Assembly: GCF_000769655.1 (NCBI RefSeq)
Contig: NZ_CP008887.1
Coordinates: 1,178,001 to 1,242,000 of the forward strand
Direction of reading: 5' to 3'
From: Thermococcus eurythermalis
GTDB lineage: Archaea > Methanobacteriota_B > Thermococci > Thermococcales > Thermococcaceae
Length of the DNA stretch: 64,000 nt
Shown here in pieces: positions 25,910 to 27,861 of the stretch. Within the stretch, counting starts at the first letter, position 1; each line of letters begins with the position of its first letter. The notes beneath the pieces are model-generated. The model saw nothing but the letters and a program-made list of their open reading frames with translations, was not told where the DNA came from and did no database searches. The translations under genes were made by a program, and so were the position numbers.

Positions 25910-27593
25910 GTTCACTGGAAACTGGTTTATAGATGCCGGCATTTTAGGCTTTGTTAATTTAATGGAGGAAGTTTACGGCTGGGATTTGGAATGGCTCCAG
26001 AGACGCATTAAGGAGGAGCCAGAGAAGATTTATTATGGATATTTTCCGCTGGCTTATCTGTTCCATCATTCCGTATATCATCAATATATCAAGAATGTTC
26101 AAGATTTGAACTCCAAGATATTTGAGGTTAGAAAGAAGCTCAGTGAACTCGAGAACTCCCTCAATACATTAAACAAGGAACTTTCAAAAAGTTCTGGAAG
26201 AGAAGGGAAAAAGTTGAGAAAGAGAATTGAAAAAAGCGAGAGAAAGATTGAATCCTTGAGAGCTGAAATGGAGGAGCTCTTCAAAAAAATTGATTGGGAA
26301 AAGCAAGCCCTGGCTACAGAACGGAAAAAGCTCCAAGAGGCATCGGACGGTCTTGTTGATGAAATACTCACGGATTCAAAAAACAACTTTGAAAACGTTA
26401 AAACACTTCTCGTACAAGTAATTGGAAACTATAAGCTCCAGATACCCAAGGACCACAGGAACTTCTTTCTCTACAATCCCAAGAAAGAACCAGTTCTCGC
26501 TTTTCAGTATCTGTTTTGGCTTCTTAAGATGGATTACGGAAAGCTGAAGGAAATCAAGGGTGGAAAATCCCCAACTTACGAGAGAATTCCCGATTCCACA
26601 ATAAATCCTTTCCTTTACTCCCCTGTGGAATTCCCCAACGTGAGCTACACGAGACCCTTGACTACAGAGCAGATAACAAAAATGCTCCCTGCAGGGATAC
26701 CCGCGTATATTATTTTCTTGTCCTTCTTCAACGCCTTCCAAAGAATTCCGGGGAGTTACATAATGGTTTATGTCCCTGAACTCCAGAGCTGTTATGCAAT
26801 AAACAAGAGGTTAAAGGTTCGTATTCAAAGTTCTAATGGCAATGCTGGACTCTTCAAACTAACCTGGTCTGCGATAATAGATGAGATTGTGGAGACAAAG
26901 GCGAGGTTTTCCCTTGAGAACCTGTACATTATTGAGTTTGAAAACATCGAGAACCAGAAGCTCAAGGGCGTTGAATACATTGGCATCCCAAAGCTTCATG
27001 CCTCGATAATCCTCGACGACAAGATACGAGACGCTCTAAACACTTCATTACCGACAGGTGACTCAAACATCTGGCTTCTCGGTGAGTTCATAAAGCAGAA
27101 GCCCCTCTACCCGCTGATTTCGAAACACATCTGGAATGTCGTGAGGAAAAACAGTTCTCCTAAATGGAGAACCAGCCTCTATGCTCTCGCCGTTGATGCG
27201 AAGTTGAGGAGCGAAGGGAACTCAGGTCTGTTTGGCCGGGCTTTCCTTGACCGTCCAAAGAGAGCGGCTGTCGAGGTTAAGGACTTCCACAGGGATATGA
27301 ACGGCGTTGCCATGACAATCAAAGAGCTTTCGCCTGAAATCGGCGGGAAGAACCTGATTCACCCTCTATTCTCAGCACTGAGAAGGCACAACAGAGACGC
27401 CTTTGTCAATACACTCCTCAAGGCACTTCTCCAGGCTAAAAGCAGAGACAAAGTAGCCATAATTAACTCCTACCTCTTTAGGCGTGTTTTGAACAACGAT
27501 TCCTCCTGGGAGGATTTTGCCCTTGCCCTCGTTATAGGTCTTGTTGGAGGCGGTGGAGATGCAAGTTCAGGACAGGACATTGTGGAAGATTAA
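25890..27593 (+). CDS. cas8b: Cas8 (Cst1-like large subunit, type I-B/Tneap) with internal coiled coil
   Basis: A 567-residue protein in the position of the large Cascade subunit, which recognises the PAM, between cas6 and cas7. Family assignment rests mainly on position and size; the N-terminal [26 protein letters not shown] fits Cst1-like Cas8. Residues about 70-155 form a strongly charged heptad-like coiled coil ([37 protein letters not shown]). I see only one cysteine, so the paired CxxC zinc motifs known in some Cst1 proteins are absent. The last ~80 residues resemble the next small gene. The region 26.1-27.0 kb is noticeably more AT-rich than the neighbouring genes. Confidence 0.8.
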
Positions 27594-27861
27594 AAGCCTT
27601 AGTAGAGAAGTTCTCGGCGGGGCCGGTTCCGAAAACTACCGGCAGAAGCTCGTTTTCGATCTACTCAACGCCGTCAAGGCAAACGACCAGAACAGGTTTC
27701 TATGGGTCCTCTTAAGAGCAATCAACGCCCACTCCAAGGACAATCCAAAGGCCAGAGAGCTTTCTTCCGTGCTCATGGAGGTCTTTCCTTCTTCGGAGTC
27801 TGACTTTGAAAAGGTTGCCTACTCCGTAATACTTGGGATAATGGCCGGGGGTGAAAGCTGA
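27559..27861 (+). CDS. small Cascade-subunit candidate (Cas11-like), paralogue of the Cas8 C-terminus
   Basis: A 100-residue helical protein between cas8 and cas7. Its sequence can be aligned by eye with the Cas8 C-terminal domain: both have an IK-LS-E--GG segment, then LVFDLLNAVKANDQNRFLW here against [19 protein letters not shown], and VAYSVILGIMAGG against [13 protein letters not shown]. In several type I systems the small subunit Cas11 is translated from an internal start in cas8. A stand-alone duplicate of that region would supply the same subunit from its own gene (inference). The start is ATG 27559 behind GGAGGCGGTGGAG; it overlaps cas8 by 35 bases and cas7 by one. Confidence 0.72.
   Translation: MQVQDRTLWKIKSLSREVLGGAGSENYRQKLVFDLLNAVKANDQNRFLWVLLRAINAHSKDNPKARELSSVLMEVFPSSESDFEKVAYSVILGIMAGGES

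What the first reader, a model, noticed from the sequence alone, without database searches (positions are those of the whole stretch)
27300..27861. Stand-alone gene duplicates the Cas8 C-terminal domain: a possible separately encoded Cas11 for the I-B module
The 100-residue protein at 27559-27861 can be aligned by eye with the last ~80 residues of the preceding Cas8: an IK-LS-E--GG segment, a matching amphipathic helix pair, and VAYSVILGIMAGG against [13 protein letters not shown]. Known type I-B, I-C and I-D systems make the small subunit by internal translation of cas8. Here the same region seems duplicated into its own gene with its own ribosome binding site while the Cas8 copy is kept.
Basis: partly seen in the sequence, partly recalled or inferred. 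Interest (0 to 1): 0.75.

Follow-up and report, generated by a model that had tools for sequence, protein, structure and literature searches.

The report
Separately encoded Cas11 beside Cas8 paralogue
In these heat-loving archaea the small subunit of a CRISPR DNA-targeting complex has its own gene, an ancient relative of the tail of the neighbouring large-subunit gene, whereas most related systems are thought to make this subunit from inside that gene; the small-subunit family was already catalogued, but this origin was not described in the papers I could read.

Summary
ORF 27559-27861 (100 aa) is homologous to the C-terminal domain (CTD) of the preceding Cas8b. Profile-profile comparison gives 97% probability (E ~1e-10), far above shuffled controls and independent of the terminal GG motif. 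The protein matches a curated Cas11b profile (PADLOC PDLC01541, "CAS-I-B; effector_SS", E=3e-52), so this stand-alone small subunit is a catalogued family, although papers of 2025-26 still describe I-B as lacking a cas11 gene.

Every evaluable Thermococcales Cas8b locus (13 of 13), plus three other archaeal genomes, has the order cas8b-cas11b, and Cas8b keeps its CTD each time. CTDs and Cas11b proteins form two fully supported sister groups: one ancient split, no gene conversion. Both are predicted five-helix bundles. cas11b overlaps the cas8b end and starts behind a strong Shine-Dalgarno site written in the codons of the Cas8b GGG tail. The in-frame ATG at the CTD start (27297) has no such site.

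Best reading: a cas8 3'-end duplication split the roles. The Cas8b CTD would be the fixed first segment of the Cascade belly; the separate gene would supply the repeated segments. Homology, gene structure and selection are shown; the Cascade role is inferred. An invariant Met at 27297 leaves residual internal translation open.

The parts
25121..25909 (+). cas6 (crRNA endonuclease), first gene of the I-B module; exact start uncertain
   Evidence: NCBIfam TIGR01877 E=1.8e-45; Pfam Cas6_I-A and Cas6_C
25890..27593 (+). cas8b, large subunit, 567 aa, with its C-terminal domain retained
   Evidence: PADLOC PDLC01542 Cas8b E=2.7e-147; no specific Pfam or NCBIfam family
27312..27557 (+). Cas8b C-terminal domain, the stretch homologous to the stand-alone Cas11b
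   Evidence: hhalign 96.9%, E=1.3e-10; controls; AF2 five-helix model of 27255-27590, pLDDT 85.6
27297..27299 (+). in-frame ATG at the start of the CTD, Met in 16 of 16 relatives; possible relic of an internal start, no Shine-Dalgarno site
27546..27554 (+). Shine-Dalgarno site of cas11b (GGAGGCGGT), written in the GGG-motif codons of the Cas8b tail
   Evidence: duplex with 16S tail -12.2 kcal/mol; background median -4.5, 1st percentile -11.7
27559..27861 (+). cas11b, stand-alone small subunit, 100 aa; its first 35 nt overlap the cas8b end
   Evidence: PADLOC PDLC01541 Cas11b E=3.1e-52; dN/dS 0.03-0.18 in relatives; AF2 five helices, pLDDT 91.5
27847..27854 (+). Shine-Dalgarno site of cas7 (GGGGGTGA), written in the AGGE tail codons of cas11b
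   Evidence: sequence; -14.5 kcal/mol for the 27861 start
27861..29039 (+). cas7 (Cst2/DevR type), backbone subunit
   Evidence: TIGR02585 E=7.5e-80
29036..29872 (+). cas5 (Cas5t)
   Evidence: TIGR01895 E=3.3e-29
29863..32478 (+). cas3 helicase-nuclease, HD domain fused
   Evidence: TIGR01587 E=1.6e-64, TIGR01596 E=5.9e-13
32475..33029 (+). cas4
   Evidence: TIGR00372 E=1.9e-23
33039..34019 (+). cas1, type I-B
   Evidence: TIGR03641 E=1.3e-130

Best explanation
27559-27861 is cas11b, the separately encoded small subunit of this archaeal I-B Cascade. It arose by an ancient duplication of the 3' end of cas8, before the divergence of all 15 known pairs, with the Cas8 copy kept. Shown: homology of the two proteins, a single split, conserved pairing, matching predicted helix order, strong purifying selection, and a strong own ribosome-binding site embedded in the Cas8 tail codons. 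Inferred: the Cas8b CTD is now the single fixed first segment of the Cascade belly, while cas11b supplies the repeated belly segments that follow it and hold the displaced non-target strand. Translation of cas11b at the cas8b end, with cas7 starting at the cas11b end, would let the cell make more Cas11 than Cas8 without an internal start inside cas8.
For: Curated profile PDLC01541 Cas11b matches all 15 family members and also hits the CTD of all 16 Cas8b. hhalign CTD versus Cas11b 96.9%, E=1.3e-10; about 15 sd above shuffled controls with the GG tails removed. In 94 Thermococcales genomes, 13 have Cas11b and 14 have this Cas8b; the 14th is cut by a contig end; nothing else in any genome rings below E=1e-3. 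The same pair occurs in three further archaeal genomes. Reciprocal monophyly 100/100. AF2: five helices in the same order in both. Best of 350,542 PDB chains for the Cas11b model is the type I-A Cascade small subunit 7tr6_E, with Cmr5 and Cas10 chains also in the top 30, though none is significant alone. Start site: 13 of 15 cas11b starts have Shine-Dalgarno energies of -11.3 to -14.2 kcal/mol against a background median of -4.5. dN/dS 0.03-0.18. In a solved I-B Cascade the belly is the Cas8b CTD plus three Cas11b of the same sequence (PMC11096372).
Against: No experiment on any member was found. Foldseek E-values to known Cas11 are not significant, and the CTD model finds none. No sequence relative has a solved structure. 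The direction of the split (duplication out of cas8, or an old separate gene later copied into cas8) is not fixed, because no fused-only outgroup could be fetched. The invariant Met at 27297 could mean that internal translation persists. Two of the 15 starts (G094, G095) were set by me at a weak site; stronger GTG starts lie a few codons downstream.
Confidence: 0.86

Rival explanations
1. Internal translation of cas8b from ATG 27297 still supplies Cas11, alone or together with the separate gene, so the belly holds CTD-type small subunits and the stand-alone protein is a second, partly redundant kind.
For: Met 27297 is invariant in 16 of 16 Cas8b in a poorly conserved stretch (local conservation 0.35, second lowest of 82 invariant columns) and lies 89-101 codons from the stop, the size of Cas11. 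Synonymous conservation just upstream is at the 90th percentile. Internal translation is the documented route in other I-B systems (PMC11899642, PMC13199841).
Against: No Shine-Dalgarno site at working distance: median -4.1 kcal/mol, the same as background, while the separate gene has -11 to -14. The separate gene is under strong purifying selection and always present.
Confidence: 0.15
2. The small subunit was always a separate gene in this lineage and the Cas8b CTD was acquired by an independent fusion; function today is as in the best explanation.
For: The tree is unrooted, so the direction is open. Cas11b matches the CTD of another Cas8b family (PDLC02050) better than this Cas8b's own CTD does (E 1.9e-9 against 0.026), and Cas11b changes more slowly than the CTD.
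Against: Every other I-B Cas8b profile met here carries the CTD inside Cas8, so a fused ancestor needs fewer steps. Adjacency and overlapping reading frames fit a tandem duplication.
Confidence: 0.2
3. The small protein is not a Cascade subunit but a regulator or inhibitor that mimics the CTD.
For: A free copy of a subunit domain could compete for the belly site; no experiment excludes it.
Against: Strict co-occurrence with cas8b inside the effector operon, stronger conservation than the CTD, and the need of I-B Cascade for free Cas11 (PMC13199841), for which no other source is well supported here.
Confidence: 0.04
4. Fission: the small gene is the detached tail of cas8 and the apparent copy in Cas8 is chance helical similarity.
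For: Fission does occur elsewhere: in G133 a Csh1-type cas8 is split into 480 aa and 142 aa genes.
Against: In all 16 relatives here Cas8b keeps a full CTD, aligned to the family profile end, and similarity is far above shuffled profiles.
Confidence: 0.01

Closest known systems
PADLOC PDLC01541 Cas11b (CAS-I-B; effector_SS)
   Same: Same protein family, full length, E=3.1e-52; all 15 relatives match.
   Different: Nothing in sequence. The profile label says nothing of the relation to the Cas8b tail or of how it is translated.
PADLOC PDLC01190 Cas11b, 'Small subunit of some of I-B systems'
   Same: Also a separate small subunit of I-B; 6 of 15 members match weakly, best E=1.1e-4.
   Different: A different, longer family (144 positions); no convincing member in 115 + 390 genomes searched (the one hit is an ATP sulfurylase).
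Internally translated Cas11b of type I-B (Synechocystis PCC 6714, Haloferax volcanii; assumed for Thermotoga maritima)
   Same: Small subunit homologous to the Cas8b CTD; belly of CTD plus Cas11b (PMC11096372, PMC11899642, PMC13199841).
   Different: There the small subunit is the same sequence as the CTD and comes from one gene. Here it is a paralogue, 18-26% identical to the CTD, from its own gene.
Cas11a/Csa5 of type I-A (one sits in this window at 34219-34566)
   Same: Separate gene for the small subunit; nearest solved fold to the Cas11b model is I-A Cascade 7tr6_E.
   Different: No sequence similarity found. Csa5 belongs to the I-A module with Csa2, Cas5a and Csx9.
Split Csh1-type Cas8b of G133 (L085)
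   Same: A separate gene that encodes the Cas8b CTD, directly before cas7.
   Different: Fission: the Cas8 part has lost the CTD. Here the CTD was duplicated and kept.

Membership tests
Cas11 small subunit (type I Cascade) | Sequence match to a curated Cas11 profile | tested here: met
   PDLC01541 E=3.1e-52, 97 of 98 positions
Cas11 small subunit (type I Cascade) | Small, all-helical bundle | tested here: met
   100 aa, five helices, pLDDT 91.5, pTM 0.86
Cas11 small subunit (type I Cascade) | Fold like solved Cas11 proteins | tested here: inconclusive
   Top PDB hit is I-A Cascade 7tr6_E, TM 0.52/0.49, probability 0.57, but E=1.3
Cas11 small subunit (type I Cascade) | Gene inside the effector operon next to cas8/cas7 | tested here: met
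   13 of 13 evaluable Thermococcales loci and 3 others
Cas11 small subunit (type I Cascade) | Homology to the Cas8 CTD, as in I-B, I-C and I-D | tested here: met
   hhalign 96.9%, controls
Cas11 small subunit (type I Cascade) | Several copies per Cascade; needed for complex or interference | not testable with these tools
   Needs purification and genetics
Internally translated Cas11b | Internal start codon with ribosome-binding site in cas8 | tested here: inconclusive
   Invariant ATG at 27297 but no Shine-Dalgarno site above background
Internally translated Cas11b | Small subunit identical in sequence to the Cas8 CTD | tested here: not met
   18-26% identity within each genome
Type I-B effector module | Cas8b, Cas7b, Cas5b and Cas3 of I-B type | tested here: met
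   PDLC01542, TIGR02585, TIGR01895, TIGR01587

The most novel reading that the evidence does not exclude
The two paralogues form a mixed belly with three kinds of segment: the Cas8b CTD, Cas11b from its own gene, and a CTD-type small subunit still made from the invariant internal ATG 27297, so that one Cascade holds two non-identical small subunits with divided tasks.
Probability: 0.1. Interest if true: 0.7.

Novelty: new variant of a known kind. Interest (0 to 1): 0.42.

Why it matters
Papers of 2025-26 describe type I-B as having no cas11 gene and as making the small subunit by internal translation. This lineage does it another way, while a curated library already lists the protein, so the general statement needs an exception. 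Because the Cas8 tail and the small subunit are separate genes, each can be deleted or mutated alone. That makes a question testable that is hard to reach in single-gene systems: what the Cas8-attached segment and the free segments of the belly each do. It also gives two separate routes (duplication here, fission in G133) by which a gene inside a gene becomes independent, and a ready-made free Cas11 for expressing a heat-stable I-B Cascade, which in the Thermotoga system needed an added cas11 (PMC13199841).

Tried and rejected
Chance helical similarity: rejected by shuffled, reversed and trimmed profile controls. Fission: rejected because Cas8b keeps its CTD in all relatives. Recent duplication or gene conversion: rejected by reciprocal monophyly and equal cross-paralogue identity within and between genomes, 23% and 23%. 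Pfam and NCBIfam have no family for either segment. PDB sequence searches with the protein and both profiles gave nothing. Foldseek with the CTD gave no Cas11. No relatives on plasmids or viral contigs. PDLC02050 and PDLC01190 were searched for fused-only or other separate relatives; only members of this family and one false hit (ATP sulfurylase) came up. Distant Cas8b N-termini in G322, G376 and G550 run off contig ends, and no Cas11b was found in those genomes. A superposition of the two models was not possible because coordinates are not released to the script box; only helix order was compared.

Full report
What is there. The window lies in a 2.1 Mb genome whose nearest named relatives are Thermococcus. 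A type I-B module runs cas6 (25121-25909), cas8b (25890-27593), a 100-codon ORF (27559-27861), cas7 of the Cst2 type (27861-29039), cas5t, cas3, cas4 and cas1. A separate I-A module with its own small subunit, Csa5/Cas11a (34219-34566), follows, then a CRISPR array with at least 71 repeats.

The observation. The 100-aa protein has no Pfam or NCBIfam family but matches PADLOC's Cas11b profile PDLC01541, 'CAS-I-B; effector_SS', over its whole length at E=3e-52. The same profile hits Cas8b residues 487-556 at 7.8e-5, and two Cas8b profiles hit the small protein at their C-terminal ends. With 15 Cas11b and 16 Cas8b tails collected, hhalign gives 96.9% probability and E=1.3e-10 over 82 columns. Controls: with the terminal GG cut away the score is 52.0; 200 column-shuffled CTD profiles reach 11.7 on average (sd 2.6, maximum 19.4); the reversed profile reaches 20.6; without the last helix the score is 40.0. 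The similarity is therefore homology. Two details of the by-eye alignment should be dropped: the IK-LS-E--GG piece is not a family feature, and the GG tails have a second cause, described below.

Distribution. In 94 Thermococcales genomes, 13 carry Cas11b and 14 carry this Cas8b. The 14th Cas8b lies at a contig end, so its neighbour cannot be seen. All significant hits of the Cas11b profile in all genomes are either cas11b or the adjacent cas8b tail. Three other archaeal genomes (G094 and G293, Thermoplasmatota; G095, an unplaced archaeon) carry the same pair in the same order. No Cas8b of this family was found whose neighbourhood could be read and that lacked the separate gene.

History. In a maximum-likelihood tree of 31 domains the CTDs and the Cas11b proteins are two groups with full support (100/100). 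Cross-paralogue identity is 23% both within and between genomes, so there has been one old split and no gene conversion. Cas11b is more conserved than the CTD in 90 of 105 genome pairs. The gene is under strong purifying selection, dN/dS 0.03-0.18 outside the overlap. The direction of the split is inferred from parsimony only: other I-B Cas8b profiles carry the domain inside Cas8. A fused-only outgroup could not be fetched.

Fold. AlphaFold2 models of both segments are confident, with five helices in the same order: Cas11b 5-19, 25-40, 44-58, 63-75, 80-99 (pLDDT 91.5); CTD 2-29, 31-43, 47-58, 64-79, 85-97 (pLDDT 85.6). Against 350,542 PDB chains the best match of the Cas11b model is the type I-A Cascade small subunit, 7tr6_E (TM 0.52, probability 0.57). 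Cmr5 (2zop) and Cas10 of Csm complexes (9no4, 6ifk) are also in the top 30. No E-value is below 1, so this is a pointer, not a proof. The CTD model found no Cas11.

Translation. cas11b starts inside the cas8b end, 35 nt before the cas8b stop in most relatives. Its Shine-Dalgarno site, GGAGGCGGT (27546-27554), is written in the codons of the Cas8b GGG tail, and the site for cas7, GGGGGTGA (27847-27854), is written in the cas11b tail codons. Thirteen of the 15 cas11b starts have pairing energies of -11.3 to -14.2 kcal/mol; in-frame codons of the window's cas genes have a median of -4.5 and a first percentile of -11.7. The two exceptions, G094 and G095, have better GTG starts a few codons on. The in-frame ATG at the start of the CTD (27297), the obvious place for internal translation, has a median of -4.1, no better than background. 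It is nevertheless Met in all 16 Cas8b, in a poorly conserved stretch, and synonymous conservation upstream is at the 90th percentile. I leave open whether this is a relic, a weak live start or a buried structural Met.

How it probably works. In the solved I-B Cascade the belly is the Cas8b CTD plus three Cas11b of identical sequence, which hold the displaced strand (PMC11096372). In the Thermotoga I-B system Cas8b does not stay with the complex without Cas11 (PMC13199841). By analogy, here the Cas8b CTD would be the single first segment and cas11b would supply the rest. Separate genes would free the two to diverge, and translation of cas11b at the cas8b end would set the excess of small over large subunit. 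These last steps are inference.

Known or new. The statement that I-B lacks a stand-alone cas11 is current in the literature (PMC13199841, PMC11899642). Yet PADLOC holds two Cas11b profiles, one of them labelled 'Small subunit of some of I-B systems'. The family is therefore catalogued. I found no paper, in a library that lacks most subscription journals, that describes its paralogy with a retained Cas8 CTD. A useful contrast is G133, where a Csh1-type cas8 is split into an N-terminal and a C-terminal gene: fission without retention. I rate this a new variant of a known kind, of moderate interest.

Noticed in passing
L085:4567-6430 (-), genome G133, Thermoplasmatota: A Csh1-type I-B cas8 is split into two overlapping genes, 480 aa (positions 1-425 of PDLC01623) and 142 aa (positions 428-543), directly before cas7: an independent separation of the small-subunit domain by fission, seen in one genome only.
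   Followed up: partly
27297-27299: Met at the start of the Cas8b CTD is invariant in 16 of 16 Cas8b in a poorly conserved stretch, without a Shine-Dalgarno site; relic of an internal start or structural residue.
   Followed up: partly
27546-27554 and 27847-27854: The GG tails of Cas8b and Cas11b encode the Shine-Dalgarno sites of the next genes. In G094 and G095 the GG of Cas11b has moved behind an insertion but stays at the site needed for cas7, as if kept for the ribosome site.
   Followed up: partly
26070-26460: The window's Cas8b has a coiled-coil-rich N-terminal third and scores lower against the family profile (482 bits) than most full-length relatives (640-1026 bits); possibly a replaced segment.
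   Followed up: no
34192-40359: A complete I-A module (Csa5, Csa2, Cas5a, Csx9/Cas8a, cas3', cas3'', Csa3-like regulator) lies directly downstream, so the cell encodes two different separate Cas11 proteins.
   Followed up: no
42027-46800 (approximate end): CRISPR array with at least 71 repeats GTTGCAATAAGACTCTAGGAGAATTGAAAG, spacing 65-68 nt.
   Followed up: no
40594-41283: A second Cas4-like PD-(D/E)XK protein (Pfam PF12705) next to cas2, besides the cas4 of the I-B module.
   Followed up: no
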